The translations under genes and the position numbers were made by a program. Below the pieces are notes generated by a model that searched no databases, had not been told where the DNA came from, and worked only from the letters and a program-made list of their open reading frames with translations. A DNA stretch of 64,000 bases, taken from assembly GCF_002300555.2 (NCBI RefSeq), contig NZ_NTHN02000004.1, forward strand, positions 1 to 64,000, written 5' to 3'. This stretch comes from Alloyangia mangrovi. GTDB lineage: Bacteria > Pseudomonadota > Alphaproteobacteria > Rhodobacterales > Rhodobacteraceae. Shown one piece after another: positions 2,003 through 56,920 of the stretch; within the stretch, counting starts at the first letter, position 1; every line of letters starts with the position of its first letter.

Positions 2003-2879
2003 ATGCCCGAATTCCCCCTGCTCCCCACCCCCGCCGACCCGCGCCTGACCCGGCGCATCTCGGGCACCGACCAGACCGGTGCCGAGACCGAGATCTCGGT
2101 GGTCGAGGAGCGCCCGCTGACCATCTATCTCAACCGCCAGGAAATCGTCACCGCGATGACCATCGGTGACTATCCCGAGTATCTGGCGCTGGGGTTCCTG
2201 CGCAACCAGGGGATGCTGCACGCCGATGACGTGGTGACCGGCGTCGATTACGACGAGGAGATCGAGACCGTGGTGGTCCGCACCGAGCGCGAGACCTCCT
2301 ACGAGGAGAAGGTGCAGAAGAAGACCCGCACCTCGGGCTGCGCCGTCGGCACCGTCTTCGGAGACATGATGGAGGGGCTCGAGGGGCTTACGCTGCCGCA
2401 GGTCGAGGTGCGCACCTCGTGGCTCTATGCCTTGGCGAAAGAGATCAACACCACCCCCTCGCTCTATCTCGAGGCCGGGGCGATCCACGGCACGGTGCTG
2501 TGCCAGCAGGACAGGCCCTTGGTCTACATGGAAGATGTCGGGCGGCACAACGCGGTCGACAAGATCTCGGGCTTCATGTTCCGGCACGGACTGGGGGCCG
2601 AGGACAAGATCCTCTACACCACCGGGCGGCTGACCTCCGAGATGGTGATCAAGACCGCGCTGATGGGCATTCCGGTGCTGGCCTCGCGCTCGGGCTTCAC
2701 CGCCTGGGGGGGTCGAGATCGCCCGGCAGGTCGGCCTCACCCTCATCGGGCGGATGCGCGGCCAGCGCTTCGTGTGCCTGTCGGGCGAAGAGCGGCTGGT
2801 GCGCGATGTCGATCCTTCGTCCGTCCCCGAAGAAGACCGCAAGTCCCGCCGGAAGTCCGCTGACGAGGCCGCCGAATGA
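2003..2879 (+). CDS. fdhD: FdhD formate dehydrogenase accessory sulfurtransferase, frameshifted
   Basis: FdhD passes sulfur to the bis-MGD cofactor, as the sulfido ligand needed for formate dehydrogenase activity. The first ~236 codons match the family: SGCAVG with the sulfur-carrying Cys region, EDVGRHNAVDK, TTGRLTSEMV and ASRSGFTAWG. At 2706-2712 a run of seven G shifts the frame, and the as-sequenced product reads nonsense to a stop at 2863. Removing one G restores VEIARQVGLTLIGRMRG and a normal C-terminus ending at TGA 2877-2879, which overlaps the mobA ATG (ATGA). Corrected length is about 291 residues. The sharp restoration and intact overlap argue for a recent indel or a sequencing error, not an old pseudogene. 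The Shine-Dalgarno site is weak. Confidence 0.85.
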
Positions 2880-3526
2880 GCCGCCCGATGCAGCAGCCGC
2901 TGGGGGTGATCCTCGCGGGCGGCCTCGCCACGCGCATGGGCGGCGGCGACAAGGGCCTGCTGGAGATCGGCGGCGCGCCGCTGCTGCAGCGGGTCATCGA
3001 CCGGATCGAGCCGCAGGTGGGGGCGCTGGCGCTCAATGCCAACGGCGATCCGGGGCGCTTTGCCCGCTACCGCCTGCCGGTGCTGCCCGACACGATCCCC
3101 GGCTTCCCCGGTCCGCTCGCGGGGGTTCTCGCCGGGCTCGACTGGGCCGCCGAACAGGGTGCCGACAGCATCGTCACCGTGGCTGCCGACACGCCCTTCT
3201 TCCCCTGCGATCTGGTGCCCCGCCTGCTGCTCGCCGCCGAGGAGGCGCCGCACCTGCTGGCGCTGGCCTGCACGCCGCGCTCCGGGGACGAGGCGCTGAA
3301 ATCCGGCGGCGGCAAGAAGATCAACCGGCACCCCACCTTCGGCCTCTGGCCCGTTTCGCTGCGAGACGACCTGCGCGCGGCGCTCGAGGGCGGGCTGCGC
3401 AAGGTGGTGCTCTGGACCGACCAGCACGGCGCCGGCGAGGCGCTCTTCCCAGCCGAGCCCTTCGACCCCTTCTTCAACGTCAACACGCCCGAGGATCTGG
3501 CGCGGGCACAGGCGCTCGCCTCGTGA
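2876..3526 (+). CDS. mobA: Molybdenum cofactor guanylyltransferase MobA
   Basis: MobA transfers GMP from GTP to Mo-molybdopterin, giving the MGD/bis-MGD cofactor used by formate dehydrogenases. The 216-residue protein has the nucleotidyltransferase signature LAGGLATRMGGGDKGLL near residues 11-27 and the typical ADTPFFP segment around residue 100. Its ATG overlaps the (frame-corrected) fdhD stop by 4 nt, and its TGA overlaps the mobB GTG by 3 nt (GTGA), so translation is probably coupled through the operon fdhD-mobA-mobB-moeA. Confidence 0.93.
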   Translation: MSRPMQQPLGVILAGGLATRMGGGDKGLLEIGGAPLLQRVIDRIEPQVGALALNANGDPGRFARYRLPVLPDTIPGFPGPLAGVLAGLDWAAEQGADSIVTVAADTPFFPCDLVPRLLLAAEEAPHLLALACTPRSGDEALKSGGGKKINRHPTFGLWPVSLRDDLRAALEGGLRKVVLWTDQHGAGEALFPAEPFDPFFNVNTPEDLARAQALAS

Positions 3527-4014
3527 AGGTCTACGGCGTCACCGGCAGCAAGAACTGCGGCAAGACCGGGCTGATGGAACGGCTGGTGGCGGAGGTCTGC
3601 GCCCGCGGTCTTTCGGTCTCGACGCTCAAGCACGCGCATCACAGCACCGACGTCGACCAGCCCGGCCGCGACAGCTACCGCCACCGGCAGGCCGGGGCGC
3701 GCGAGGTGCTGCTGGCCTCGCCGCACCGTTGGGCGCTGATGCACGAGTTGCGCGATGCGCCCGAGCCACCGCTGGAGGAGCTTCTGACCAAGCTGAGCCC
3801 GGTCGATCTGGTGCTTATCGAAGGCTACAAGTCCTCGCCGCACCCGAAGATCGAGGCACATCGGGCCGAGACCGGAAAACCGCTGCTGTCCCCCGCGAAC
3901 GCCAGCGTCCGCGCGGTGGCCGCCGACAGCGCGGTGGAAACCACGCTGCCTCGGTTCGACCTCGACGACACCGTCGCCATCGCCGATTTCATCCTGCGCG
4001 AGGTGGGCTTGTGA
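3523..4014 (+). CDS. mobB: Molybdopterin-guanine dinucleotide biosynthesis protein MobB
   Basis: MobB is a GTP-binding partner of MobA. The protein (163 residues from a GTG start at 3523) begins KVYGVTGSKNCGKTGLM, a P-loop of the MobB type. HAHHSTDVDQPGRDSYRHR and LVLIEGYKSSPHPKIE follow, all family hallmarks. The GTG overlaps the mobA stop, and the stop overlaps the GTG of the next gene at 4011. GTGA couplings at both ends point to tight co-expression. Confidence 0.92.
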   Translation: MKVYGVTGSKNCGKTGLMERLVAEVCARGLSVSTLKHAHHSTDVDQPGRDSYRHRQAGAREVLLASPHRWALMHELRDAPEPPLEELLTKLSPVDLVLIEGYKSSPHPKIEAHRAETGKPLLSPANASVRAVAADSAVETTLPRFDLDDTVAIADFILREVGL

Positions 4015-6173
4015 GCTTCGACACCTTCGTCGTCGTGGACTGGTCGGGAGCCTCGAAACCCTCGCCCGCCAAGCCTTCGAAGGACGCGATCTGGATCGGC
4101 ATCGCCCGCGAAGGCGGCGTCGAGGCCAGCTACCACCGCACCCGCGCAGACGCGACCGACACCCTCGCCACCCTCTTCGAGACCGAGCGCTCTACCGGGC
4201 GGCGGGTGCTGGCGGGGTTCGACTTCCCTTTCGCCTATCCGAAGGGCTTCGCCGAGGCGCTCACCGGTACCTCCGAGCCGCTGCGGCTCTGGCAGGCGCT
4301 GGCGCAGCGCATCGAGGATGCGCCGGACAATGCCAACAACCGCTTCCAAGTCGCCGCCGAACTGAACGATCTCTTCCCCGGGATCGGGCCCTTCTGGGGC
4401 TGCCCCGACACCTTTGGCGATCCGCGCTTGCCGAAGAGGGGCACGCAGCGGGACGGTCACGGGATGCTTGAACGGCGCAAGTGCGACGCCACCCCCGGCG
4501 CGCAGACGGTCTGGAAGCTATTTACCACCGGCTCGGTCGGCTCGCAGGCGCTGCTCGGCATCCCCCGGCTGCTGGCCCTGCGCGAGAGGTTCGGGGCCGA
4601 TCTCTCCGTGCGTCCCTTCGAGCAGCAGGACACGCCGATCACGCTGGTCGAGCTCTTTCCCTCACTCATCGCCCACACCGTCGCCGCGCTGGCCGAGCCG
4701 GACGAGATCAAGGACCGGGCGCAGGTCCGCATCCTCGCCGGGGCGCTGCGCGCGCTCGACCCGCAACGGCTTGACGCCATGACCCGCGAGGGCCACCCCG
4801 AGGAAGGATGGATCCTCGGTCTTGGTCACGAGGAGGCTCTGATCCGGGCCGCGCATCGCGCCATCCCCCAACCCTGCGAGGCCCCCATGCGCTCCGATCC
4901 CGACAGCCCCCTCCTTCCGCCGCGCCTGCGCGACGATTGTTTCGCCATGCCGCAGGGCGTGAGCTGGGTGCCCGTGGACGAGGCGCTGGCCAAGCTGCGC
5001 GCCGCACTCAACCCGGTGACCGGGACCACCACCATCGCCACCGCCCGCGCCGCGGGCCGGGTGCTGGCGGCGGATGTGGCGGCCAGGCGTTCCAACCCGC
5101 CGATGCCGAACTCGGCTGTGGATGGTTACGGCTTTGCCCATGCCGCCACCGACAGCGGCGTGCAGCGCCTGCCGCTGGTCGCGGGCCGCGCGGCCGCCGG
5201 GCAGCCCTATCCCGACGCCGTGCCTGCGGGCCATGCGGTGCGCATCCTCACCGGTGCGATCCTGCCCGAGGGCGTCGATACGGTCGTGCTCGAAGAGGAC
5301 ACAAATACCAACGGCACAACGGTGGTCTTCGACGGACCGATCAAGCCGCGTGCCAACACACGCAAGGCCGGCGAGGACATGGCCGCCGGTGAACTTGCCC
5401 TGGCCAAGGGCCGCCACCTGCGCGCGCCCGATCTGGCGCTGGCCTCGGCGCTCGGCATCGCCGAGCTGCCGGTGCACCGGCCTTTGCGCGTGGGGGTGCT
5501 GTCGACCGGCGACGAAATCATCGCTGCCCCCCAACTGCGCGCCGCGCCGCACCAGATCTGGGACGCCAACCGCCCCATGCTGCTGTCGCTGGCGCAGGGC
5601 TGGCACTACGAGCCGGTGGACCTCGGCCACGTCGGCGACGATGCCGAAGAGATCGCGGAGCGCCTGCACGAGGGGGCGCGCGAAGCGGATGTGATCCTGA
5701 CCTCGGGTGGCGCCTCGGCGGGGGACGAGGACCACGTCTCGGCCCTGTTGCGCGCCCGCGGCACCCTGTCGAGCTGGCGCATCGCGCTGAAACCCGGGCG
5801 TCCACTGGCACTGGCGATGTGGGAAGGCGTGCCGGTCTTCGGGCTGCCGGGCAACCCGGTGGCGGCGCTGGTCTGCGCGCTGGTCTTCGCGCGCCCTGCC
5901 CTGTCGCTGCTCTCGGGCGCGGGCTGGACCGAGCCGCAGGGGTTCACCGTCCCCGCCGCCTTCGAGAAGCGCAAGAAGCCGGGACGCCGGGAATACCTGC
6001 GGGCCCGGCTGAACGAGGCGGGCGCGGCGGAAGTTTTCGGCTCCGAAGGCTCGGGCCGGATCAGCGGGCTGTCGTGGGCACAGGGGCTGGTGGAACTGCC
6101 GGACGGGGCGCTCGAGGTCACCCCGGGCACACCGGTGCGCTACATCCCCTACGCGTCCTTCGGGCTGGTCTGA
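4011..6173 (+). CDS. moeA: Fusion: N-terminal DUF429-like/unknown domain plus MoeA molybdopterin molybdenumtransferase
   Basis: A single uninterrupted frame of 720 codons starts at a GTG that overlaps the mobB stop. Residues 1 to about 290 form an unknown domain starting VVVDWSGASKPSPAKPSKD, which recalls RNase-H-like DUF429 proteins. Residues from about 293 on are a complete MoeA: NSAVDGYGFA, the AVRILTGA region, LSTGDEI, TSGGASAGDEDH and GLPGNPVAA. MoeA inserts molybdate (or tungstate) into adenylylated molybdopterin. An internal ATG at 4887 would give a stand-alone 428-residue MoeA, but only a poor Shine-Dalgarno precedes it. I favour a true fusion because there is no stop between the parts; two separate polypeptides by internal initiation remains possible. 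Confidence 0.88.
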   Translation: MSFDTFVVVDWSGASKPSPAKPSKDAIWIGIAREGGVEASYHRTRADATDTLATLFETERSTGRRVLAGFDFPFAYPKGFAEALTGTSEPLRLWQALAQRIEDAPDNANNRFQVAAELNDLFPGIGPFWGCPDTFGDPRLPKRGTQRDGHGMLERRKCDATPGAQTVWKLFTTGSVGSQALLGIPRLLALRERFGADLSVRPFEQQDTPITLVELFPSLIAHTVAALAEPDEIKDRAQVRILAGALRALDPQRLDAMTREGHPEEGWILGLGHEEALIRAAHRAIPQPCEAPMRSDPDSPLLPPRLRDDCFAMPQGVSWVPVDEALAKLRAALNPVTGTTTIATARAAGRVLAADVAARRSNPPMPNSAVDGYGFAHAATDSGVQRLPLVAGRAAAGQPYPDAVPAGHAVRILTGAILPEGVDTVVLEEDTNTNGTTVVFDGPIKPRANTRKAGEDMAAGELALAKGRHLRAPDLALASALGIAELPVHRPLRVGVLSTGDEIIAAPQLRAAPHQIWDANRPMLLSLAQGWHYEPVDLGHVGDDAEEIAERLHEGAREADVILTSGGASAGDEDHVSALLRARGTLSSWRIALKPGRPLALAMWEGVPVFGLPGNPVAALVCALVFARPALSLLSGAGWTEPQGFTVPAAFEKRKKPGRREYLRARLNEAGAAEVFGSEGSGRISGLSWAQGLVELPDGALEVTPGTPVRYIPYASFGLV

Positions 6174-6195
6174 GGCGGGCCGGAGGAGTCGGGCC

Positions 6196-6423
6196 TCAGC
6201 CCTTGCGGATCAGGTAGACCTGCGTCTCGCCCTCGTCGACCTGACCGACCAGCGCATGGCCGGCCTCGTTGCAGAAATGCGGCACGTCGATCACCGCCGC
6301 GGGATCGGTGGCGACCACCCGCAGCACCTCGCCCGATCCCATGCCCTGCAGGCGCTTGCGCGCCTTGAGCACCGGAAGCGGACAGAGCAGCCCGCGCGCA
6401 TCGAGTTCCTGATCCCAAGTCAT
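6196..6423 (-). CDS. TusA-family sulfurtransferase
   Basis: This is a 75-residue protein with the TusA signature DARGLLCPLPVLKARKRL, in which Cys14 would carry the persulfide. A second Cys sits in PHFCNEAGH. TusA-like proteins deliver sulfur for tRNA thiolation and, in several bacteria, for Mo-cofactor and formate dehydrogenase maturation. The place between moeA and the FDH1 genes, and near fdhD, suggests a dedicated sulfur relay here (inference). It is divergent from the FDH1 operon. Confidence 0.88.
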   Translation of the reverse strand: MTWDQELDARGLLCPLPVLKARKRLQGMGSGEVLRVVATDPAAVIDVPHFCNEAGHALVGQVDEGETQVYLIRKG

Positions 6424-6434
6424 GCGCCCTCAAT

Positions 6435-6467
6435 AGCAGACGGCCCGGCACTGTCCATCCGTCTGCT
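6435..6467. promoter_or_regulatory. Inverted repeat in the tusA/FDH1 divergent promoter region
   Basis: AGCAGACG at 6435-6442 is the reverse complement of CGTCTGCT at 6460-6467, with a 17-nt spacer. It lies 12 bp upstream of the tusA start and could be an operator half-site pair or a leader hairpin of tusA. Confidence 0.4.
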
Positions 6468-6474
6468 GCCTCCC

Positions 6475-6495
6475 TTGATAGAGAACCCCTATCAA
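6475..6495. promoter_or_regulatory. LysR-type operator-like dyad upstream of FDH1 operon
   Basis: TTGATAG at 6475-6481 and CTATCAA at 6489-6495 form a perfect dyad with a 7-nt spacer. This is the T-N11-A layout of LysR-type regulators, which are known to control fds formate dehydrogenase operons in other proteobacteria (FdsR). It is 80 bp ahead of the FDH1 start. No LysR gene is in this window, so the cognate regulator would be encoded elsewhere. Confidence 0.5.
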
Positions 6496-6575
6496 CTGAC
6501 GGCACAGCGATATTGACCGGCAATGACCGGATGCCCCAAGAACGGATACCCACCGCGACGACAGGGAGGCATTCG

Positions 6576-8270
6576 ATGGCACTGGATCAGCAGCAGGGGA
6601 TCTGGAAATCCGGCCGTAAGGGCGGCAAGGGCCGCGCCACGCCGAAGGGTCGCCAGCTCGACGACCGCGCCTGGGACGAGGTGAAGGCGCTGCTCGGCGA
6701 CCGGCCACGGCGGCGCGACCTGCTGATCGAATTCCTGCACCTGATCCAGGACCGCTACCACCACCTCTCGGCGGCCCACCTGCGCGCCTTGGCCGAGGAG
6801 ATGCGGCTGTCGATGGCCGAGGTCTGGGAGGTCGCCACCTTCTATGCCCATTTCGACCCCGTGAAGGAAGGCGAGACGCCGCCGCCCGACCTGACCATCC
6901 GCGTCTGCGACTCACTCTCCTGTGAGATGGCGGGCTCGGAGGCGCTGTTCGACGCGCTTTGCGCCGGGCATGACCCCGCCCGGGTCCGCGTGCTGCGCGC
7001 CCCCTGCATGGGCCGCTGCGACACCGGCCCGACGGTCGAGATCGGCCACCTGCACGTCGATCACGCCACCCCCGCGAAGATCAAGGCCGCGCTCGACCAG
7101 GGCGATTTCGAGCCGGTGATCCCTGCCTACGAGACCTTCGAAGCCTATCGGGCGGGCGGCGGCTACGACAAGCTGCTGACGCTGCGCGAGAGCGGCGACT
7201 GGGAGAAGGTGCAGGAGGAGATCTTTGCCGCCGGCCTGCGCGGCATGGGCGGCGCGGGCTTCCCCTCGGGCAAGAAATGGGGATTCGTGCGCGCCAATCC
7301 CGGCCCGCGCTACCTTGCGGTGAACGGCGACGAGGGCGAGCCCGGCACCTTCAAGGACCGCTTCTACCTCGAACGCACCCCGCACCTGATGCTCGAGGGG
7401 ATGCTGATCGCCGCCTGGGCGGTCGAGGCCGAGACCTGCTACATCTACATGCGCGACGAGTATCCGGCGATCCACCACATCCTGCACGAGGAGATCGCAG
7501 CGCTCGAGGCCGCCGGGATCGTGGCGCCCGGCTACATCGACCTGCGCCGCGGCGCAGGCGCTTATATCTGCGGCGAAGAGTCGGCGATGATCGAGTCGAT
7601 CGAGGGCAAGCGCGGCATGCCCCGTCTGCGCCCGCCCTTCGTGGCGCAGGTGGGCATCTTCGACCGCCCGACGCTGGTGCACAACGTCGAGACGCTGCAC
7701 TGGATCGGCCGCATCGCCCGCGAGGGGCACCGGATCAAGTCGGAGATCGCGCATAACGACCGCAAGGGGATGCGCAGCTACTCGCTCTCGGGGCGGGTGG
7801 CCATTCCGGGCGTCTACGTGCTGCCCGCCGGCAGCACGATCAACGATCTCATCAAGGCCGCGGGCGGCATGGCCGAGGGCCATGTGTTCAAGGCCTACCA
7901 GCCGGGCGGACCCTCCTCGGGGCTGCTGCCCGCCTCGCTGGGTGACGTGGCGCTGGATTTCGACACGCTGCAGCCGCATGGCACCTTCATCGGCTCGGCC
8001 GCCGTGGTGGTGCTCTCGGACAAGGACAGCGCCCGCGGCGCAGCTCTCAACATGCTGAAGTTCTTCGAGAAGGAGAGCTGCGGGCAATGCACGCCCTGCC
8101 GTGTCGGCTGCGAAAAGGCGGTCAAGCTGATGCAGGACGAGAGCTGGGATGCGGAGCTTCTGGAGGACCTCTGCCAGGTGATGACCGACGCCTCGATCTG
8201 CGGCCTCGGCCAGGCCGCACCGAACCCGATCCGGCTGGTGATGAAACACTTCCCCGAGGAGGTGAAATGA
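6576..8270 (+). CDS. NAD-linked formate dehydrogenase, fused gamma-beta subunit (FDH1 beta, NuoE/NuoF-like)
   Basis: The protein passes electrons from the alpha subunit to NAD+. Residues from about 30 to 160 form the NuoE-like thioredoxin-fold [2Fe-2S] domain (cysteines in CDSLSCEM and APCMGRCDTGP). A NuoF-like part follows with the FMN/NAD glycine loops (GLRGMGGAGFPSGKKW, GDEGEPGTFKDR, GAGAYICGEESA) and the [4Fe-4S] motif ESCGQCTPCRVGCEK. The 564-residue fused form matches the Methylorubrum FDH1 beta subunit, not the separate FdsG/FdsB of Rhodobacter capsulatus. ACAGGGAGG precedes the ATG at 6576, so the in-frame ATG at 6513 is rejected. Confidence 0.93.
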   Translation: MALDQQQGIWKSGRKGGKGRATPKGRQLDDRAWDEVKALLGDRPRRRDLLIEFLHLIQDRYHHLSAAHLRALAEEMRLSMAEVWEVATFYAHFDPVKEGETPPPDLTIRVCDSLSCEMAGSEALFDALCAGHDPARVRVLRAPCMGRCDTGPTVEIGHLHVDHATPAKIKAALDQGDFEPVIPAYETFEAYRAGGGYDKLLTLRESGDWEKVQEEIFAAGLRGMGGAGFPSGKKWGFVRANPGPRYLAVNGDEGEPGTFKDRFYLERTPHLMLEGMLIAAWAVEAETCYIYMRDEYPAIHHILHEEIAALEAAGIVAPGYIDLRRGAGAYICGEESAMIESIEGKRGMPRLRPPFVAQVGIFDRPTLVHNVETLHWIGRIAREGHRIKSEIAHNDRKGMRSYSLSGRVAIPGVYVLPAGSTINDLIKAAGGMAEGHVFKAYQPGGPSSGLLPASLGDVALDFDTLQPHGTFIGSAAVVVLSDKDSARGAALNMLKFFEKESCGQCTPCRVGCEKAVKLMQDESWDAELLEDLCQVMTDASICGLGQAAPNPIRLVMKHFPEEVK

Positions 8271-8312
8271 TGCGCGCAGGCTCCTCCCGCCCCCCCTGCC
8301 CGCGCGCATTTT

Positions 8313-13224: not shown

Positions 13225-13295
13225 GTCGGGGGGGAGCCTAGCACGGCCCCTTTCCCCGGTCAGTCCGGATCGTCGGGCGGGATTTTCGGCCCGGA

Positions 13296-15575: not shown

Positions 15576-15578
15576 GGT

Positions 15579-28027: not shown

Positions 28028-29294
28028 ATGAACAGCACCCTCAACTTCACAGGATGGCGCAAGGCCGTCGCGGCCGCGCTCCTGGCCTGCGGCTGCCTCG
28101 CCTCCCCTGCCGTCGCCCTCGACCGCGGCGCCGTCGAGGGCCAGTTCCGCGGCTGGCTCGAACAGACGGTCTGGCCGCAGGCGGCGCGCAAGGGCGTGAC
28201 ACGCGGCACCTTCGAGGCGGCCTTTGCGGGCGTGCATCTCAACTGGGATCTGCCGGACCTCGTGCCCCCCCGGCACCAAGCCACAGACTCCCAAGGAGCA
28301 GCGCCAGGCCGAGTTCGGCCAGCCCGCGAAATACTTCAACCGCGGCTCCATCGACAGCGCGACCGCGATCGGGCGGCAGATGGCCCGGCAGCACGCCCCG
28401 GCCCTCGCGGCGACCGAAAGGGCCACCGGCGTGCCCGGCCGGATCATCCTCGGCATCTGGGGGCGCGAGAGCGGCTATGGCCGCGTGGCGATCCCGCACA
28501 GCGCCTTCGAGGTGCTGGGCACCAAGGGCTTCATGTCGACCCGCGCCGACTACTTCACCGCAGAGCTGATCGCGGCATTGCAGATCGCGCAGGCCGGGCA
28601 CGCCCCCGCCGGGGCGATGAAAAGCTCTTGGGCCGGGGCGCTGGGGCAGCCGCAGTTCATGCCGTCGAACTTCCTGAAATACGCCGCCGACGGCAATGGC
28701 GACGGCCACGCGGACATCTGGCGCTCGGAGTCCGACACCATCGCCTCTATCGGCAGCTACCTCGCCAAACACGGCTGGCAGAGCGGGCGCGACTGGGGCT
28801 TCGAGGTCCGCGTGCCGGCCTCGGTCTCCTGCACGCTGGAAGGCCCCGATCAGGGCAAGCGGATCTCGGACTGGGAGAAGATGGGCATCACCCGCGTCTC
28901 CGGGCGCCCCTTCCCCGAAAACGAACGGCGCGGCGAGGGCTTCCTGCTGATGCCCGCCGGGCGGCACGGGCCTGCGTTCATCGTGACGCCGAATTTCTAC
29001 GTGCTGAAGGACTACAACATGAGCGATCTCTACGCGCTCTTCGTCGGCCACGTGGGCGACCGCATCCAATACGGCTCAGGCGATTTCAGCGCGCCATGGG
29101 GCAAGGTCGGTGGGCTCTACCGCTCGGACGTCGCCGCCATGCAGCGGGCGCTCGAGCGGCAGGGCCATGACGTCGGCGGCGCCGACGGGCTGCCGGGATT
29201 CAAGACCCGCCGCTCGATCGGCCGCTGGCAGGAGGCGCAGGGGCGTCCCGCCACCTGCTTCCCCGAGGCCGCGATGAAGGCGGCGTTGCGCTAG
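28028..29294 (+). CDS. Lytic murein transglycosylase (MltB-like) with C-terminal PG-binding domain, frameshifted
   Basis: The gene encodes a periplasmic peptidoglycan lyase. The first ~80 codons give a signal peptide and the family N-terminus (FRGWLEQTVWPQAARKGV). At 28265-28271 a run of seven C shifts the frame. Removing one C lets the frame continue as GTKPQTPKEQRQAEFGQPAKY and on through the catalytic domain (IILGIWGRESGYG with the catalytic Glu, GALGQPQFMPSNF). The end is a peptidoglycan-binding domain (MQRALERQGHDVGGADG). Corrected length is 421 residues. Its TAG shares 4 nt with the converging regulator's TAG. Confidence 0.85.
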
Positions 29295-30205: not shown

Positions 30206-30228
30206 GGGGGCGGCACCGTACCGCCCCC
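30206..30228 (-). terminator. Hairpin between tupA and the HTH regulator gene
   Basis: GGGGGCGG at 30206-30213 pairs with CCGCCCCC at 30221-30228 around a 7-nt loop, 10 nt after the tupA stop. Without a T tract it could be an attenuator that lowers regulator expression, or a site that shields the mRNA. Confidence 0.5.
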
Positions 30229-30237
30229 CGAACCCTA

Positions 30238-38625: not shown

Positions 38626-39640
38626 CCGCCCTCAGCGGCCTCGGCCGCAAGAGCGCCGCGCTCTTCCTGCTCGAGATCGAGGGCCGCAGGCTGCTGCTCG
38701 ACATGGGCGGCGGGCTGGAAGTCGGCGAACGCCCGGACCTCTCGCAGGCGGGGCGCATCGACGCGGTGCTGCTGAGCCATGCCCATGTCGATCACGTCGG
38801 CGCGCTCGACCGGCTGGCCGAAGATCGGCGCTCCGCCGGTCTATGCCACGCGAGAAACCCAACGCCAGCTCCCCGCAGCCCTGCGTCCCCTGCGCCTCGC
38901 CGAGCTGCCGGACCGCGGCTCTGCCGAGGTGCTGGGCCTCCGCCTCGACACCGGCCGCTCGGGCCATGCGCCCGGCGGAATCTGGATGCGCTTTCCGACC
39001 CTGCGCGGCGGATTTCTCTACACCGGCGATTTCAGCACCGAAGCCCCGCTCCTGCGCTGCGATCCCTTCCCGCGCAGCGCCACAGTGCTCGCCGATGCCT
39101 CCTACGGTGACCGCGACGAGTCGCTCGCCTTCCAGATCGCCGCCCTGACCGGCGCCGTGTCAGGCGGCGCGGTGCTGCCCTGCCCGCTCGGCGGACGCGG
39201 CCCCGACATGGTGACCGCGCTCGCCGCAGCGGGACTCTCCGTAAATGCCTGCCCGCAGGTCGCGGCCGAGACCGAACGGCTCACCGGAACCCGCCCGCCC
39301 GTCGCCACCCCAGAGAGCGCCAGCCCCACGCAGATCATCGTCGCCGACGGGCCCAATGCCGAGCATGGTCTCGCCGCCGCGCTGCGCGAGCGCCCGGGCT
39401 TCCGTTTCATCTTCTCCGGCCACGTACCGCGCAGCAGTCCCGCCCGCGCCCTGCTCGACGCGGGCCACGCTCGCTGGATGGGCTGGAACGTGCATCCGCG
39501 GCTCTCGGATCTGCTTGCCATGGCCGAGACCACCCGCGCAGAACGGGTGCTGCCTGCCTTCGTCGACCTGAGGGCCGCCCCCCCGCCTGACCGCCGCGCT
39601 CGGCCCGCGCCTGCGGCAGTGCACCAGTCTCGAAGTCTGA
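38613..39640 (+). pseudogene. MBL-fold metallo-hydrolase, interrupted by two frameshifts
   Basis: The frame starts at ATG 38613, overlapping the permease end by 13 nt, and reads LFLLEIEGRRLLLDMG and LSHAHVDHVGALDRL (HxHxDH metal motif). Near 38815-38825 one extra base moves the good frame to IGAPPVYATRETQRQ, continuing through FLYTGDFSTEAPLL and FIFSGHVPRSSPAR. At 39578-39584 a run of seven C shifts it again; deleting one C gives LTAALGPRLRQCTSLEV and TGA at 39638-39640. Corrected, the product has 341 residues. The first shift is not in a homopolymer, so real decay is plausible here. Confidence 0.75.
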
Positions 39641-40512: not shown

Positions 40513-41068
40513 GAACATAATTATCAAAAGATAAAGGACACTTAGGCCGAATAGCCTTCCCCCCTTCACCTGAACGAAAGTCGCCGCCCTGCAAAAACGG
40601 GCGCGAAGCTGCCATCAGGAGAGAAAACTCCGATTTGCTCAGTCATGGCAGCACCACCAGGCAGATTTACAGTAGCGCGATTTCGCCGGTCGCGCGCAGT
40701 TTTTTTGGGCCCGCGCAGCAGGATTCGCGCAAGCCCCTGCAAGGACGAAATTTTTCCACAATCTGTCCACAGGCTCAATTCAACCCTCGCGCGAACGACT
40801 CGGGCGCGGGTACCACGCCGCCGAGAAGGCAAGGCAGAATCACTTGCAAACGAGCGGATTTCTTCGCGCTCGAATTGATTAACATACTGTTACTATTAGA
40901 GTTTTACCGAAATCATAGGGGACACCCACCACATGCGGTAGGTAACCGTTAAGCAGCCACACTCAGCGGTATACCCTCGCAGAGACCGCCCACGGCGAAC
41001 TGTCGGCTTGTGGACAAAAGGTTGATAAGTACAGCCGCGGCCCCAAGGGCACCCTCCGCAAACGAAAA

Positions 41069-43324: not shown

Positions 43325-43534
43325 GATGCGATGCCTTTCCTGGGGGTTTCGCCCCCTTTAGCCGTTCTGCATACAAAGGTCTACAGTCGCGGTGCCGCAT
43401 CGGATCGCCGCACCGCGCCCCCCCTGCCCTAGCGCGGATTTCAAGGGATTTCCACGCCGCGCTAGATGATTGCGCGACCATGCGCCGGTCGCGAGTTTGG
43501 CCTGCCGCGAGCCGGGCGCGGACAGGCCCCCGGC

Positions 43535-49848: not shown

Positions 49849-51195
49849 ATGCACACCGCGTTTTCGGAGCTTTCAAGTCTTACACGGACCATTGAAAGGT
49901 CAAGCATAACCGGCGAGGTGAAATCCGCGCTCGGGCTGGTCCTGACGGTCTCGGGCCTCGAGCGCGCGGTCGGCATCGGCGCGCATTGCCTCGTGCAGGG
50001 CCGCGAGGGACCGGTTCTCGCGGAAGTTGTGGGGATCGACGAAAGCGGCACGCGCCTCCTTCCCTTCGGCAGCTGGGACGGGGTGCGCACCGGCGATCCG
50101 GTGCAGGTCAGCCACAGCGCCAACGAAATCCGCCCCGACGACGCCTGGATCGGCCGGGTGGTGAACGCGCTTGGCCAGCCGCTCGACGGCAAGGGCCGCC
50201 TGCCCGAGGGCAACAGGCCGCGCAAGATCCGCGCCGCGCCCCCGCCCGCCTTCGAGCGCCGCCGCGTTGGCGAGCGGCTCAACACCAAGGTCAAGGTGAT
50301 GGACGTCTTCACCCCGCTCTGCCGCGGCCAGCGCATGGGGGTCTTCGCCGGCTCCGGCGTCGGCAAGTCGACAATGATGGCCATGCTCGCGCGCGGCGCG
50401 CAGGCCGATGTGATCGTTGTCGGCCTCGTCGGCGAGCGGGGCCGCGAGGTGCAGGACTTCCTTCAGGAAGACCTCGGCGAGGAAGGCATGGCGCGCTCGG
50501 TGGTCGTCGTCTCCACCGGCGACGAGCCGCCGCTGATGCGCCGCCAGGCCGCCTGGACCGCCACCGCCGTGGCCGAGCATTTCCGCGACCAGGGCAAGCA
50601 GGTCCTGCTGCTGCTCGACAGCGTCACCCGCTTCGCCATGGCGCAGCGCGAGATCGGCCTTGCCGGGGGCGAGCCGCCCACCGCCAAGGGCTACCCGCCC
50701 ACCACCTTCGCCGAGCTGCCGCGGATGATGGAACGCGCCGGCCCCGGCTCGGGCGCAGCCGGCGACATCACCGCGCTCTACACTGTGCTGGTCGATGGCG
50801 GCGACATGGAGGACCCGATCGCCGACGCGGTGCGCGGCATCATGGACGGGCACATCGTGCTCGACCGCAAGATCGCCGAGCAGGGCCGCTTCCCGGCGGT
50901 GAACCTGCTGCGCTCGATCTCGCGGATGCTGCCCGACTGCCACCACCCGGACGAATACGCGATCTACAAGGCCGCCCGCCGCGCCGCCGCGCGCTACGCC
51001 GACATGGAAGAGCTGATCCGCATCGGAGCCTACCGCCGTGGCAGCGACCCCGAGGTCGATTCCGCCATCGACCTCGCCGAGCCCCTCGACAAGCTGCTCA
51101 GCCAGGGCAAGCGCGAGGCCATGGACGCCTCCGAGACCTTCGCCCGGCTGCACGGCGCCCTCTCCGACGCGGACATCGTTGTCGAAGCGCCCTGA
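49849..51195 (+). CDS. fliI: Flagellar export ATPase FliI
   Basis: This 448-residue export ATPase has Walker A GVFAGSGVGKSTMMAM, GLVGERGREVQDFL, Walker B LLLLDSVTRFAMAQREI and the ALYTVLVDGGDMEDPIAD segment, all F1-beta-like. The start may be ATG 49849 or GTG 49843, two codons upstream; GGAT favours 49849. It is alone on the plus strand; fliH and fliJ are not next to it. Confidence 0.95.
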   Translation: MHTAFSELSSLTRTIERSSITGEVKSALGLVLTVSGLERAVGIGAHCLVQGREGPVLAEVVGIDESGTRLLPFGSWDGVRTGDPVQVSHSANEIRPDDAWIGRVVNALGQPLDGKGRLPEGNRPRKIRAAPPPAFERRRVGERLNTKVKVMDVFTPLCRGQRMGVFAGSGVGKSTMMAMLARGAQADVIVVGLVGERGREVQDFLQEDLGEEGMARSVVVVSTGDEPPLMRRQAAWTATAVAEHFRDQGKQVLLLLDSVTRFAMAQREIGLAGGEPPTAKGYPPTTFAELPRMMERAGPGSGAAGDITALYTVLVDGGDMEDPIADAVRGIMDGHIVLDRKIAEQGRFPAVNLLRSISRMLPDCHHPDEYAIYKAARRAAARYADMEELIRIGAYRRGSDPEVDSAIDLAEPLDKLLSQGKREAMDASETFARLHGALSDADIVVEAP

Positions 51196-51610
51196 GCTCG
51201 CCTTCTTCTCACCCAAGGCCGGGCCGCCCCGATCGGGCGGCCCGCTCTGCCTGCCCCGCGCCGTTTTGACCCGGACGCAAAGGCATTCCCGCGCGCCCGC
51301 ATCGGGATTCCTGGGCCTATTTCATAAGATCTTTGCAGAAGCGTCGCCTTAATCTTTCCTTAACTAAATCGTTGAAAAAGCGAACATCCGCCGACCCAAT
51401 TTCCCGGAATTGATGTGCATTCGGATATACCCTTACTCTCTGGGTTGACTCGTGATTAAAGCTGGATAAACAAGCCGAATATGACCAATTCGTGTCCTGG
51501 GACGCGGTCAAGGCCACCCAGAGTGGCCAAGAGCGCAGATTGTCGCCGTTCAAGTGTCCAGACGGGCCGGACTGTGTCGCATAACAGTGAAGAGTTCTTG
51601 GGGTTAACCA
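51196..51610. other. Intergenic region upstream of the sugar transferase gene
   Basis: In this 415-bp spacer, the fliI terminator comes first. From about 51310 the GC content falls. A possible promoter is TTGACT (51445-51450), 16 nt, TAAACA (51467-51472), which would leave a leader of about 130 nt before the GTG at 51611. No gene is supported. Confidence 0.4.
51221..51243 (+). terminator. Hairpin after fliI
   Basis: GGGCCGCCC (51221-51229) and GGGCGGCCC (51235-51243) form a 9-bp stem with a 5-nt loop, 25 nt after the fliI stop. There is no real T tract. Confidence 0.55.
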
Positions 51611-52300
51611 GTGTTTGACGCAGCATTTTATTCCGCAGAAGCCGGGTTTCTCGGCGAGCAGCGCCGTCTCTACCGCAAAAAGGCGCAAGGCATTTATCGC
51701 CAATTCGCCAAGCCGATTTTGGACACAGTTCTCGCCCTCGCGCTCCTGCCCCTTCTTGCCCCGGTGATCGCGATCCTGTGGCTGTTGGTCCGCCTCGAAG
51801 GCGGACCCGGCTTCTTCGGCCACCGCCGGATCGGCAAGAACGGCAGGGTCTTCCGCTGCTGGAAGATCCGCACCATGGTGCCCAACGCCGAGCAGAAGTT
51901 GCAGCAGTATCTCGCCAGCAACCCTGCCGCCCGCGCCGAATGGGCCCGCGACCACAAGCTGACCAACGATCCGCGCATCACCCGCCTCGGCCGTTTCCTG
52001 CGCGAGACCAGCCTCGACGAGCTGCCGCAGATCTGGAACGTGCTGACCGGCGAGATGAGCTTCGTCGGCCCCCGCCCGGTGGTCCGCGCCGAGATGACCA
52101 AATACGGCATGCACCGCACCGCCTACCTGCTGATGAAGCCGGGGATCACCGGGCTGTGGCAGGTCTCGGGCCGCAACGACGTCACCTACGACGAGCGCGT
52201 CGAGATGGATGTACGCTACCTCTGCGAGCAGTCCTTCGCCACCGACAGCCGGCTGCTGCTGCTCACCGCGAAGACCGTGCTGGACCGTACCGGCCGCTGA
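51611..52300 (+). CDS. Exopolysaccharide-type sugar transferase (undecaprenyl-phosphate glycosyl-1-phosphate transferase)
   Basis: This 229-residue membrane enzyme of the bacterial sugar transferase family (ExoY/PssA/WcaJ C-terminal type) starts lipid-linked sugar assembly. One membrane segment lies at about 35-62 (LDTVLALALLPLLAPVIAIL). The catalytic core follows: GGPGFFGHRRIGKNGRVF, CWKIRTM, SLDELPQIWNVL and SFVGPRPVVRAE, with KPGITGLWQVSGR near the end. The start is GTG. It is a close paralog of the gene at 63446, and a terminator follows. Confidence 0.93.
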   Translation: MFDAAFYSAEAGFLGEQRRLYRKKAQGIYRQFAKPILDTVLALALLPLLAPVIAILWLLVRLEGGPGFFGHRRIGKNGRVFRCWKIRTMVPNAEQKLQQYLASNPAARAEWARDHKLTNDPRITRLGRFLRETSLDELPQIWNVLTGEMSFVGPRPVVRAEMTKYGMHRTAYLLMKPGITGLWQVSGRNDVTYDERVEMDVRYLCEQSFATDSRLLLLTAKTVLDRTGR

Positions 52301-52328
52301 GCGACCCCGATCCCACCACCGACGAAGA

Positions 52329-52357
52329 GACACCCCGGCCCCAAGGTCCGGGGTGTC
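52329..52357 (+). terminator. Terminator of the sugar transferase gene
   Basis: GACACCCCGG (52329-52338) and CCGGGGTGTC (52348-52357) form a perfect 10-bp stem with a 9-nt loop, 29 nt after the stop, followed by TTC. Confidence 0.7.
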
Positions 52358-52440
52358 TTCGCATCTGCGCCCGGCGATTGCGCGCGACCCGGCGCTCCGG
52401 CAGAGTGCCGCGCAACACTCTCAAGACGAAAGACCCGCGC

Positions 52441-53679
52441 ATGAGCCGCCAGACCGCCGCCCTCCCCCCTCCTGCCCCGGGCCGCTGGTCCATGCTGGCG
52501 CTGATCTGCCTCGGCGTCGTCGGCGTGCTCTGTACCTGGTTCTCGGCCACCGCGATCATCCCCGAGCTGGTCACCGACTGGCAGCTCAGCTCCACGCAGG
52601 CCGCCTGGCTGACCAATGCCGTGCAGCTCGGCTTCGTGGTCGGCGCCGTCGGCTCGAGCCTCGTCAACCTGCCCGACATCCTGCCGATGAGGCGGCTGAT
52701 GACCGCCGCCGCGGTGATCGCCGCACTCGCCAATGCCAGCCTGCTGATCTCCGGCCCGACCACGGCGATCCTCGCCCGTTTCGTCACCGGCATCGCGCTG
52801 GCCGGGGTTTACCCGCCGGCACTCAAGCTCATGTCCACCTGGTTCTCGCGCGGCCGCGGCCTGGCCCTCGGCTTCCTGATCGGCGCGCTGACCCTCGGCT
52901 CGTCGATGCCCCACCTCATCCGCGCCCTGACCACCGGCATCAACTGGCAGGCCGTGGTCTGGGGCACCTCCGCCGCCGCCCTCGCCTCGGCCATCCTGTT
53001 CGCGGGTACCTTGCGCGAAGGCCCCTACGGGTTCGGCCGCGCCGCCTTCGACCCGCGCCAGTCGATCGCGGTCTTCAAGAGCCGCCCGCTGATGCTCGCC
53101 AACCTCGGCTATTTCGGCCACATGTGGGAGCTTTACGCCATGTGGGCCTGGTTCCTCGCCTTCGCCACCGCGGCGCAGGACAGCGGCCTCGCGCCCTTCC
53201 CCTTCGGCACTGCCTCGATGCTGAGCTTCGTGGTGGTCGCCAGCGGCGTCATCGGCTGCCTGCTCGGCGGTTGGCTGTCGGACCGCATCGGCCGCTGCCT
53301 GACCTGTGCCGGGATGATGATCGTCTCCGGCGCCTGTGCTGCGCTTATCGGCTTTGCCTTCGAGGGCCCGACCCTGCTGCTCGCCGTTCTCGCGCTTATC
53401 TGGGGCATCAGCGTGATCGGCGACAGCGCGCAGTTTTCCGCCGCGGTCACCGAGCTTTCCGAGCCGCATTTTGTCGGCACCGCCCTCGCGCTGCAGCTCG
53501 GCATCGGCTTCGCCCTGACCGTCGTGGCGATCTGGCTGCTGCCGATCTTCGCAAGCCTGATCGGCGGCTGGCACTGGGCCTTCTTGATGCTGCTGCCCGG
53601 CCCGGTGATCGGCGCCCTCTCCATGCTCGCCCTGCGCCGCGATCCGGCCGCGGCTCGGCTCGCCCACGGCGCACGCTGA
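52441..53679 (+). CDS. Major facilitator superfamily transporter
   Basis: This 412-residue protein has twelve predicted membrane helices. The first half shows WQLSSTQAAWLTNAVQLGFVVG (typical MFS helix 2 region) and RFVTGIALAGVYPPALKLMS. The cytoplasmic loop after helix 8 has GGWLSDRIGRC, the MFS motif A of the second half. The substrate is unknown; the closest general look is to NarK/CynX-like and small-organic-acid carriers. The ATG is at 52441. It converges with repB, with only 4 bp between the stops. Confidence 0.87.
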   Translation: MSRQTAALPPPAPGRWSMLALICLGVVGVLCTWFSATAIIPELVTDWQLSSTQAAWLTNAVQLGFVVGAVGSSLVNLPDILPMRRLMTAAAVIAALANASLLISGPTTAILARFVTGIALAGVYPPALKLMSTWFSRGRGLALGFLIGALTLGSSMPHLIRALTTGINWQAVVWGTSAAALASAILFAGTLREGPYGFGRAAFDPRQSIAVFKSRPLMLANLGYFGHMWELYAMWAWFLAFATAAQDSGLAPFPFGTASMLSFVVVASGVIGCLLGGWLSDRIGRCLTCAGMMIVSGACAALIGFAFEGPTLLLAVLALIWGISVIGDSAQFSAAVTELSEPHFVGTALALQLGIGFALTVVAIWLLPIFASLIGGWHWAFLMLLPGPVIGALSMLALRRDPAAARLAHGAR

Positions 53680-53683
53680 GCGC

Positions 53684-54901
53684 CTATTCCGACCCGGCGT
53701 CCTCGGCGAGACCGTCGAAGGCGCCGGGAGACAGCTCCTCCCAAAAGGCGACGATGGCCTCGGCGTTCAGCGCCGACATCCAGCCATGCCGTTCGAAATC
53801 ATCCCGTGCCGCGCCCGAGAGCCGGCCAATGAACAGCAGCTTGTCTGCGTCCCGCTGGGTCGGCTTGCGGCTCGCGGCAAGATCCCTAATCCGCTCCAAA
53901 CGCCGCGCCCGCAGTGTTGACGGTTTGGCAGGGTTTCGCCGCGAAACCTCCGGCGCCTTCACCGGCTCGCCCCGGGCGAAATCCTCGCGCAGCGCCTTGG
54001 TCAGGTAGCCGACGGTGTTCTTCACCCCCTCTTGGCCTTCGACATACTCCAGTTTCTCGGCGACGTATTCCTCGCCATGCTCTGCCAGCCACTGCCGCGC
54101 AAGCCGGTCCGAGACGCCAAGCTCGCGCAACCGCCCGTAAAGCTCGGAATTGCGCAGTCCCTCGCCATCATCGAGATCGAGGATCGCCAGCTGCGGGTTC
54201 TCGGAGATCAGGAAGCGGATCTCGGTCACCGTCCGTCCCATCTTGCGGGTCTCCGGCGTCAGGATGATGTTCGAGGTCTTGTTCACCTCGGCCACCGCGG
54301 GCTTGATGATCTTGGCGTTGAGCTGCTTGTAGACCTCGTAATAGGGGCTGTCCGCGACGCCCATCAGCCGCCGGAACAGGTCAAGCGACCACCAGCCGGT
54401 CGACCCGGTGCGCACGAAGCGGTAGCAGTTCTCGTAGAGTGCAAGCGCGTGGCCCGAGGTGAAACGCCGCTGGATGTTGAGATTGATCAGGGCAAAAACC
54501 TTAGGGTCGTGCAGTTTCTCGGCCAACGCCGGCGAGTAGGCATATTCGCAAATGCCCCCCTTGAGCTTGGCGTAGCTGAGCAGCGAGCTAACGCCCCACT
54601 CCTGCTGGCCCTTCTCGTCGAGCATGTCCCATTCAGCCACGGTCTCTGCAAGGCCGCGCAGAGACTGTTTCAGGGTCTCCATGTCGTTCGAATTGTAGCC
54701 GATCATTAGGCTCAGCGTCCGCGCATCGATCTGGTGCCGGGACTGCGAGGTGAGCGTGTCATAGGCGTTGAGCAGCAGCACGTTCGACAGTTTGCGCTGC
54801 AGCAGCGTGAGCTTGCCCGAGACATGGATCGCCGCCACGTGCTTCTTCACTGCACCGCGGCGCAGGGGGCCGCTCAGCCGGTCGCGCGGGATATCGTCCA
54901 T
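53684..54901 (-). CDS. repB: RepB-type plasmid replication initiator
   Basis: This 405-residue protein has two winged-helix domains of the Rep_3 class. The block HVSGKLTLLQRKLSNVLLLNAYD begins the first, and YSPALAEKLHDPKVFALINLNIQRRFTS with LYENCYRF (kept here as separate motifs) continues the family pattern, as does MGRTVTEIRFLI. This is the replicase of RepB-type replicons in roseobacters. It should bind iterons in the adjacent spacer (54902-55515) and open the origin. It is divergent from parA-parB, the expected module. Confidence 0.9.
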   Translation of the reverse strand: MDDIPRDRLSGPLRRGAVKKHVAAIHVSGKLTLLQRKLSNVLLLNAYDTLTSQSRHQIDARTLSLMIGYNSNDMETLKQSLRGLAETVAEWDMLDEKGQQEWGVSSLLSYAKLKGGICEYAYSPALAEKLHDPKVFALINLNIQRRFTSGHALALYENCYRFVRTGSTGWWSLDLFRRLMGVADSPYYEVYKQLNAKIIKPAVAEVNKTSNIILTPETRKMGRTVTEIRFLISENPQLAILDLDDGEGLRNSELYGRLRELGVSDRLARQWLAEHGEEYVAEKLEYVEGQEGVKNTVGYLTKALREDFARGEPVKAPEVSRRNPAKPSTLRARRLERIRDLAASRKPTQRDADKLLFIGRLSGAARDDFERHGWMSALNAEAIVAFWEELSPGAFDGLAEDAGSE

Positions 54902-55515
54902 TCTGCTCTCGCTTTCCCGGGGTCTTGCCCCACTTGCCGGTCCTCATGCGTCCCGGCCTTATGGAAACGACTCTGCAAAGCGAGTCGCCGCGGCCGGGTT
55001 GTCCATATGATCCGCGAAAAGGTATCCGTAAGCAAGAACTTCGCTGGCACCTCAAGGCACCTCCGGCCCCGTCCTGCACATGGGTACCTAAGTTTCTCGG
55101 GGTACCCGGAAAGGTATCCATTTCCGGGATACCGACTCACCAGCGCTGCGCCCGTCGAGTCCGATTCGTTGCGCCTAGACCCTAATCCGACGAAAACAGG
55201 CTCTAACGCGCCGTCTTTCCTGGGCTGCCCCGAGAATCGGAGCCCTTGATCCCGCAAACGGGTGCCTTCAGCCCCGTATCGAGGCACCCTTCCGCCCGGA
55301 AGCAGGCACCCATACCGCGGTATCCATGCGAATTTATTGGGTTTTTATTAACCTAAAGATCTTAAAAGGACTCAAAGAAACTCAAACAAACCGGCTGTCT
55401 GCGTGGTATCTTCCATATTTAGAGAGGGATAAGCGCCCCGACGCTTCCACTCTGCCCCCAGCATGTGCCATAGTTCTGAGGATATCGCGGCGAACAGCGA
55501 ACATGGTGAGGCGAC
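54902..55515. other. Candidate replication origin / partition control region
   Basis: This 614-bp spacer between repB and parA has a short word, GGTATCC, at 55021-55027, 55113-55119 and 55319-55325, and inverted as GGATACC at 55127-55133. A 12-bp palindrome, ATACCGCGGTAT, lies at 55312-55323. An AT-rich stretch (55330-55430) includes two tandem 10-mers, ACTCAAAGAA and ACTCAAACAA, at 55370-55389. Repeats plus an AT-rich element next to an initiator gene are what a plasmid origin looks like. The exact iterons and the parS site cannot be assigned by eye. Confidence 0.6.
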
Positions 55516-56920
55516 ATGGCACATAAACCCGGCACTCCGCCGAAGGCAGACCTTCCCCCCTACTTCAACATCGACCCGGCCGAGGCGGCCGCCAAGCTGG
55601 CCGATCCGATCGACACGGCACGCTTCGCAAAGGCGGCGTCCTTCGCAATGCGCGGCCGCGATGATCTCGCCCGCCGCGGCTATGCGCCCGACGGCGCCAA
55701 GCGGTTGCGGCGCTTCTCGACCTGGGAGGTTTGCCGCTACCTGATCCCGGTGAACCCCGCCCACTTGCGCCGCGTGCTGCGGCAGAACCCCGACCTGCCT
55801 CAGGGCGAAGGCGAGGGAGGGTCGAAGTGGTTCACCCTCGAAGAGGTCCTGCGCCTGCGCGACCATTTCGCCGAGGAAGGCGCCAAGGACCGCGAGTACC
55901 GCGCCTGGCGCCCCGAGGGTCTGCCGGCCAAGGTTGTCGCCGTGGCCAACTTCAAGGGCGGCGTCGGCAAGACCTCGACCTGCGCGCATCTGGCGATGTC
56001 GGCCGCGCTCGATGGCTACAAGGTGCTGGTGATCGACCTCGACAGCCAGGGCTCGATGACCTCGATCATGGGCGGCAAGGTCGAGGACGAATGGCAGACT
56101 GTCTTCCCGATGCTGGCGCGCGACTACGCGCGTCACCTGCAACAAGAAAACAAGGTCCGCGAGGCGGCCGGGCAGAAACCTTTCCAATTCGATGAGACAC
56201 TGACCGCCGCGTTAGAGGTTTCGCCACGAAACCTCGTGCAGAAGACCCACTGGCCCAACATCGATCTCATCGGCGCGCAGCTCAATCTTTATTGGGCCGA
56301 GTTCCAGGTGCCGGTCTGGCGCATGCAGATGCTGAGCTGGCCGCTCTGGGACGCGTTGACCAATGCGCTAGAAGAGGGGGGGGATGCTGGATGACTATGA
56401 CATCATCCTGCTCGATACCCCGCCGGCGCTTGGCTACCTGACGATCAATGCGCTGTCGGCGGCCGACATCCTGCTGGTGCCGCTGGGGGCGTCCTTCCTC
56501 GAGTTCGACTCGACCGGGCGGTTCTTCGACATGATCTACTCGACCTTCGCCTCGATCGAGGAAGGGGAGAACCGGGTGCGGCGGGCGGACGGCTTGCCGG
56601 AGATGCGGTTCGAGTGGGATGCGGTTCGCGCGCTGGTGACGCGGTTCGACGCGGCGCAGCAGACCGATCTGGCGAATGTCATCCAAGCCTATTTCGGCGA
56701 CTTCATGACTACCTACCGGCAGGAGCTGACGGCGATGGTCGGGCAGGCAGGGGAGCAGGTCTCGGGGATTTACGAGACCGATTACCGGGACTTCAATCGC
56801 GACACCTACGTGCGCGGGCGCGAGACCTTCGACCGGACCTGGGCGGAGGTGAAGGAGGTGATCCTCGGGACATGGTGGCGCGACGCGCAGATGGAGCAGG
56901 CTGAGAGGGAGGCCGTCTGA
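55516..56920 (+). CDS. parA: ParA partition ATPase, frameshifted in a G8 run
   Basis: ParA moves plasmid copies together with ParB. The first 289 codons include an N-terminal DNA-binding region (FSTWEVCRYL, WFTLEEVLRLRDHF) and the deviant Walker A NFKGGVGKTSTCAHLA near residue 140. At 56376-56383 eight G shift the frame, and as sequenced translation ends at 56394. With seven G it continues as MLDDYDIILLDTPPALGYL (Walker B) and on to the C-terminus; corrected length 467 residues is normal for this plasmid class. The end overlaps the parB start (TGATG). A replicon of this size should need ParA, so an error or slippage is likelier than loss. Confidence 0.88.

What the first reader, a model, noticed from the sequence alone, without database searches (positions are those of the whole stretch)
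2706..56383. Four genes broken by one extra base, each in a G/C run of seven or eight
fdhD (G7 at 2706-2712), the MltB-like transglycosylase (C7 at 28265-28271), the MBL hydrolase (C7 at 39578-39584) and parA (G8 at 56376-56383) are all restored by removing one base from the run. In each case the restored frame reaches a natural C-terminus. All are insertions, and I noticed no intact coding sequence with such a run; other 7-mers I found lie between genes (for example 8290, 13228, 43418). The pattern means either systematic over-calling of homopolymers or contingency loci that slip. Either way the annotation of these four genes as dead would be wrong.
Basis: seen in the sequence. Interest (0 to 1): 0.75.

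Follow-up and report, generated by a model that had tools for sequence, protein, structure and literature searches.

The report
Miscounted G/C runs in draft genome
Four genes look broken because this draft assembly writes long runs of G or C one base too long, elsewhere in the sampled genome as well and even in a gene no bacterium is thought to live without, so this is most likely a sequencing artefact and not biology.

Summary
The four long runs and the frame breaks are in the deposited sequence, at the stated coordinates. They are not peculiar to these genes. In 826 kb sampled from the same assembly, 54 of 59 classifiable coding G/C runs of seven or more shift the frame by +1; none of 36 classifiable runs of six does, and in five congeners 21 of 21 classifiable runs of seven are in frame. 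The run-length spectrum is distorted: sixes are scarcer and sevens roughly fivefold commoner than in three relatives. In the region aligned to those relatives, lineage-specific small indels in runs of six or more are 13 insertions and no deletion; the relatives have none. Aligned relatives are one base shorter at all four sites, bar two divergent parA rows. One affected gene is the housekeeping sigma factor rpoD, with no second copy found; 12 of 12 congeners searched are one base shorter there. mutS and mutL frames are open. Systematic over-calling of runs is the best explanation; contingency loci are not supported. Correction: the MBL gene also carries an extra A at 38821-38822, outside any long run. 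No reads were available, so the technical cause is inferred.

The parts
2706..2712 (+). G7 run in fdhD (gene about 2003-2879); orthologues hold GGGGGG or GGGGCG there
   Evidence: 16 of 16 orthologues (14 congeners, 2 from other families) one base shorter; 4 further rows (L001, L021-L023) are not orthologous there and were dropped
28265..28271 (+). C7 run in the MltB-family lytic murein transglycosylase gene (about 28028-29294)
   Evidence: TIGR02283, E 7.9e-93, downstream piece; 10 of 10 aligned rows, 7 relatives, one base shorter
39578..39584 (+). C7 run near the 3' end of the MBL-fold metallo-hydrolase gene
   Evidence: (6 of 6 aligned rows, 5 relatives, one base shorter); name from the annotated orthologue CEW88_RS20985
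38821..38822 (+). Second frame change in the same MBL gene: AA where relatives have a single A; not a long run and not explained by the run-length effect
   Evidence: (8 of 8 aligned rows, 5 relatives)
56376..56383 (+). G8 run in parA (about 55516-56920), which is followed by parB (56920-57996)
   Evidence: 15 of 17 aligned rows one base shorter, one equal (G008), one two shorter; rows include paralogues on other replicons. The complete relative G009 holds an in-frame G7 there
13228..13234 (+). Intergenic G7; two of three aligned relatives have G6, the third GGGGGCG of equal length
43418..43424 (+). Intergenic C7; 4 of 5 aligned rows one base shorter, one two shorter
40700..40706 (+). Intergenic T7; 5 of 5 aligned rows (4 relatives, flanks only 73-84% identical) one base shorter
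795..801 (+).
8290..8296 (+). Intergenic C7; flanks too divergent to compare

Best explanation
The extra bases are errors of the deposited consensus. The base-calling or consensus step of this assembly reads runs of about six or more identical bases, mainly G/C, one base too long. Estimated from coding G/C runs, true fives are not lengthened (0 found, against 646 in frame), true sixes are lengthened in about half of cases (40 lengthened, 34 right) and true sevens mostly (10 lengthened, 2 right). Each lengthening inside a gene makes an apparent +1 frameshift. In the living strain fdhD, MltB and parA are probably intact; the MBL gene is open because of its second frame change. Shown: the distorted length spectrum, the one-way shift, its spread through the sampled genome, and its presence in rpoD. 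Inferred: that the cause is technical. The sequencing platform is not known to me.
For: Per 100 kb the assembly has 10.6-12.1 G/C sixes and 10.6-13.2 sevens; G005, G013 and G015 have 17.8-19.8 sixes and 1.6-3.1 sevens. Whole genome: 881 GGGGGGG windows, against 119-409 in 18 of 19 congeners and 821 in G002; less 221 eight-base windows this makes 660 runs of seven or more. Frame test on 826 kb: 105 G/C runs of seven or more, 46 not classifiable; of 59 classified, 54 are +1, 3 in frame, 2 the other way. Runs of six: 36 classified of 105, 34 in frame, 0 at +1, 2 the other way. Five congeners: 36 such runs of seven or more, 15 not classifiable, 21 of 21 classified in frame, G002's 11 among them. 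Orthologous segment lengths: 8 of 8 runs of seven or eight on which the relatives agree are +1 here, 4 of 4 sevens in relatives are neutral. Lineage-specific 1-2 base indels in runs of six or more: 13 insertions, 0 deletions here, none in three relatives. rpoD is hit, is one base longer than in 12 of 12 congeners searched, and no second full-length match was found. lysA is hit too. Intergenic runs that can be compared are mostly longer too. MutS and MutL frames are open.
Against: No raw reads or platform record were available. The profile (lengthening, onset at six, mostly G/C) does not match what I read of common platforms: 454 errors lean to A/T (PMC3277595, passages) with insertions and deletions about equally likely, and Ion PGM tends to shorten long runs (both PMC3623719, passages). 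The frame test has a background: runs of four and five show a shift in 3.2% and 6.8% of classified cases here and in 1.5-4.3% and 3.5-8.3% in the five congeners, probably gene borders. Three classified runs of seven or more are in frame; they may be called right, but I did not resolve them. One of the 13 insertions, at 30224, is equal in length to the closest relative, so 12 are firm. Lengthened and unlengthened sixes differ in context, for example A at the second base to the right in 4 of 40 against 16 of 34, so length may not be the only factor; codon constraints could also cause this. A few A/T runs also look lengthened, from five on (5 against 39 right). The extra A at 38821 is not explained.
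Confidence: 0.95

Rival explanations
1. Contingency loci: the runs slip during replication and switch the genes on and off by phase variation.
For: Each of the four breaks sits in a homopolymer of seven or eight, and one base flips the frame.
Against: The runs are not maintained: in fdhD 6 of 14 congeners have GGGGCG, and MltB orthologues show CCTCCCGG, CCACCGGG and CCGCCCGG. Genes hit include rpoD, lysA, a MotA-like protein, PEP synthase and transporters. 13 insertions and no deletion. About half of all coding sixes would have to be switched off at once.
Confidence: 0.01
2. A mutator strain: defective repair lengthened runs by real mutation, giving true pseudogenes.
For: Homopolymer indels are the usual signature of mismatch-repair defects (general knowledge).
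Against: MutS and MutL frames are open (function not tested). 13 insertions against 0 deletions, and no excess of indels outside runs: 8 here against 13, 18 and 33 (this genome was held against up to three references, the others against two, so these counts are only roughly comparable). rpoD would be dead.
Confidence: 0.02
3. Ordinary pseudogenes: the four genes decayed independently in this lineage.
For: The MBL gene has a second frame change outside any long run, so it alone could be a true pseudogene.
Against: In fdhD, MltB and parA the one frame change seen lies in a run of seven or eight; fdhD and parA are 97-98% identical to G015's proteins on both sides of it; the same pattern occurs at 51 further sites in the sample.
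Confidence: 0.02

Closest known systems
Homopolymer-length errors in assemblies (454, Ion Torrent and others)
   Same: Single-base indels in homopolymers, rising steeply with run length, producing false frameshifts in assembled genes (PMC3045373, PMC3277595, PMC3623719, PMC3695873; passages read).
   Different: Here the errors are almost all lengthenings, mostly in G/C, and hit about half of the coding sixes; the passages read describe A/T bias, equal insertions and deletions, or shortening of long runs.
Singleton frameshifted genes of the GeneTack survey (PMC3711429, passages read)
   Same: Frame transitions not shared by orthologues but confirmed by protein similarity, which that paper expects to be sequencing errors rather than genuine indels.
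   Different: Here they are concentrated in one assembly and tied to run length.
Phase-variable homopolymer tracts
   Same: Frame depends on the length of a G or C run.
   Different: Tracts are short, often interrupted in relatives, lie mostly in housekeeping or metabolic genes, and differ one way only.

Membership tests
Systematic homopolymer over-calling | Frameshifting indels confined to homopolymers above a threshold length | tested here: met
   No lineage-specific frameshift in clearly coding runs under six by the automatic test on C114; the AA at 38821, which that test did not flag, is an exception
Systematic homopolymer over-calling | Independent of gene function and of coding status | tested here: met
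   54 coding sites; 37 of the 50 pieces searched had a family match, of varied functions; comparable intergenic runs mostly longer too
Systematic homopolymer over-calling | Distorted run-length spectrum against close relatives | tested here: met
Systematic homopolymer over-calling | Raw reads or a second assembly of the strain disagree with the consensus | not testable with these tools
   No reads held; records of the window's own genome may be left out of the collections (notes)
Phase-variable contingency locus | Tract maintained in orthologues, or variable in both directions among close strains | tested here: not met
   tract often interrupted in relatives and in no aligned row longer than here at the four sites (one parA row of equal length, G008); no deletions. 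Strains of the same species were not available
Phase-variable contingency locus | Gene set enriched for surface, modification or other switchable functions | tested here: inconclusive
   rpoD, lysA, fdhD, MltB, plasmid partition proteins, enzymes, but also transporters and an RTX-repeat protein; no formal enrichment test
Programmed frameshift or transcriptional slippage gene | Frame transition conserved in orthologues | tested here: not met
   Orthologues of the four genes read in one frame (single CDS, and three of the four)
Mismatch-repair mutator | Loss of MutS or MutL | tested here: not met
   One match each, open frames of 879 and 821 residues, no stops inside; function not tested

The most novel reading that the evidence does not exclude
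A real strain in which replication or repair lengthens G/C runs of six or more by exactly one base across the genome, while RNA polymerase slippage or ribosomal frameshifting on those runs keeps essential genes such as rpoD working.
Probability: 0.01. Interest if true: 0.9.

Novelty: not a real feature. Interest (0 to 1): 0.1.

Why it matters
Extrapolated from the sample, which is not random but made of large contigs (54 classified coding sites in 826 kb of 5.53 Mb), some 360 coding sites in this assembly would be falsely frameshifted. Anyone reading gene loss, pseudogenes or phase variation from it would be misled. The test used here (coding frame on either side of each run, by run length, against relatives) needs no reads and could flag other such assemblies.

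Tried and rejected
Contingency loci, a mutator and ordinary decay were each tested and are set out as rivals.

A fifth candidate, C6 at 30224-30229, was rejected: it lies between a substrate-binding protein gene and a helix-turn-helix gene, and the closest aligned relative has the same length.

G002 looked like a second affected genome (821 GGGGGGG windows), but its classified coding runs of seven are in frame in 11 of 11 cases, so its excess looks real.

A first codon model was contaminated by antisense frames and was replaced; no count is used. A test on runs conserved in two relatives gave only 3 comparable G/C sixes (2 lengthened, 1 equal).

I could not name the strain or its platform: the genome-contig scan listed no record that I could take for it, and says that such records may be left out; paper searches listed no paper that I could tie to it. 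The context around lengthened and unlengthened sixes gave no clear rule.

A recount was made.
Full report
What is there. The window is the first 64 kb of contig C114 (169,136 bases) of a 5.53 Mb, 169-contig draft genome. The closest named relatives are Salipiger and Alloyangia, and the syntenic region lies on large plasmids in Alloyangia pacifica YSBP01 and T6124.

The breaks are in the text. Stop-to-stop ORFs of relatives, aligned by tblastn to the window, split into pieces that change frame at each run. With G015 the last pieces of fdhD, MltB, MBL and parA all reach the final residue of the relative's protein. With G005 and G013 the same holds for fdhD and MltB; G005 shows it for the MBL gene and G013, to within a residue, for parA; G013 gave no MBL match across the sites, and G005's best parA match is only about 30% identical. 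In the complete plasmid of YSBP01 all four genes are annotated as single CDS; in T6124 the three that lie in the stretch looked at are single CDS.

Two corrections. First, the MBL gene changes frame twice: besides the C7 run there is an extra A at 38821-38822, one base more than in all 8 aligned rows from five relatives. It is not in a long run and remains unexplained; it may be a true mutation or another error. Second, a C6 at 30224-30229, flagged by the alignment scan, is intergenic and equal in length to the closest relative, so it is not a fifth case.

Comparison at the sites. fdhD is one base shorter in 16 of 16 orthologues (four rows that are not orthologous there were dropped). In one search, which aligned all non-own loci held at that point, the fdhD (20 of 20 rows), MltB (10 of 10) and MBL (6 of 6) rows are one base shorter; some relatives appear twice. 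For parA 15 of 17 rows are one shorter, one is equal (G008, 84% identity) and one two shorter (a G009 paralogue, 78%); I did not resolve these two. G009's orthologue holds an in-frame run of seven in parA where this assembly has eight.

Sampled-genome test. I held 826,186 bases of the same genome (contigs C114 and C81 whole; parts of C11, C22, C33 and C44). On C114 and C81 the length spectrum is odd: sixes 10.6-12.1 and sevens 10.6-13.2 per 100 kb, where G005, G013 and G015 show 17.8-19.8 and 1.6-3.1. G002 has 51.7 and 15.8, G009 (40 kb only) 37.5 and 2.5. A codon model trained on three relatives assigned the coding frame on each side of every run (recounted). Of 105 G/C runs of seven or more, 46 could not be classified (19 no clear frame, 26 one side only, among them the MBL run of the finding, and 1 strand change). 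Of the 59 classified, 54 are +1, 3 in frame and 2 the other way. Of 105 runs of six, 36 were classified: 34 in frame, none +1, 2 the other way. In G002, G005, G009, G013 and G015 together there are 36 runs of seven or more; 15 could not be classified and 21 of 21 are in frame. For length seven alone, 40 of 44 against 0 of 21 has Fisher p = 2e-13. The test has a background: runs of four and five show shifts in 3.2% and 6.8% of classified cases here and in 1.5-4.3% and 3.5-8.3% in the five congeners, which I put down to gene borders.

Direction. In the part of C114 aligned to three relatives, lineage-specific indels of 1-2 bases in runs of six or more number 13 insertions and no deletion. Nine of them were flagged as coding frameshifts; one of these is the intergenic 30224 and one is a T6 run. 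The three relatives, each taken as focal, have no event in such runs. Outside such runs this genome has 8 events against 13, 18 and 33; it was held against up to three references and the others against two, so these numbers are only roughly comparable. Where the relatives agree, 8 of 8 orthologous runs of seven or eight are one longer here (two further runs of seven or more, where the relatives disagree, are left out).

Which genes. NCBIfam was searched with the longer findable piece at 50 of the 54 sites; the pieces of sites 16, 21, 31 and 32 were not sent. 37 of the 50 had a match at E 1e-8 or better, many below the curated cut-off because they are pieces. Above cut-off are, among others, the housekeeping sigma factor RpoD (E 4.2e-251), diaminopimelate decarboxylase and phosphoenolpyruvate synthase; below it, among others, FdhD, MotA and plasmid partition protein RepA. 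In rpoD the run is one base longer than in 12 of 12 congeners searched, and the DNA search found no second full-length copy in the genome; a divergent copy could have been missed. That RpoD is essential is established knowledge and was not tested here. A cell with the sequence as written would not be expected to live.

Why not biology. The tracts are not kept as tracts, since relatives carry interrupting changes. MutS and MutL have open frames. No deletions accompany the insertions. Of the five intergenic runs of seven looked at, three can be compared with relatives, and these are longer here in most aligned rows. All this follows from a consensus step that adds a base to long runs, with an estimated frequency of about zero for G/C fives, 54% for sixes (40 of 74) and higher for sevens (10 of 12). 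A few A/T runs look lengthened as well, from five on (5 against 39 right).

What remains open. I could not learn the platform. Published profiles that I read in passages do not match well: 454 errors are reported as biased to A/T (PMC3277595) with insertions and deletions about equally likely, and Ion PGM as shortening long runs (both PMC3623719). So the technical cause is inferred from the pattern, not shown. Context may matter besides length. Three runs of seven or more that stay in frame (C81:209509, C33:4874, C44:10812) were not resolved.

Verdict. Most likely an artefact of the assembly, with intact genes beneath it in fdhD, MltB and parA, and an open case in the MBL gene. Interest is low for biology; the practical value lies in flagging the assembly, where by extrapolation some 360 coding sites would be affected.

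Noticed in passing
38821-38822: Extra A in the MBL gene outside any long run; none of the five relatives aligned there has it. True mutation or isolated error.
   Followed up: partly
G002 (L156-L161): A congener with 821 GGGGGGG windows whose classified coding runs of seven are in frame (11 of 11): a seemingly real abundance of long G/C runs, unlike the window's genome.
   Followed up: partly
G000:C81:14487-15200 (L001): A second, unbroken FdhD-family frame in the same genome.
   Followed up: no
G000:C81:242943-243911: Three long G runs within about 1 kb, each with a +1 shift, in or beside a sugar ABC transporter ATP-binding gene.
   Followed up: no
G000:C81:209509, C33:4874, C44:10812: Runs of 7, 7 and 9 classified as in frame, the exceptions to the rule.
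   Followed up: no
window 55516-57996: parA-parB pair; the syntenic region is on large plasmids in Alloyangia pacifica, so the contig is probably part of a plasmid or chromid.
   Followed up: partly
G000:C81:11015: A RepA-type partition gene on another contig also has a long C7 run with a +1 shift.
   Followed up: no
L243 (G008:C28): The parA relative of G008 aligns at equal length to the window's long run, unlike other relatives, and its match is split over two contigs.
   Followed up: no
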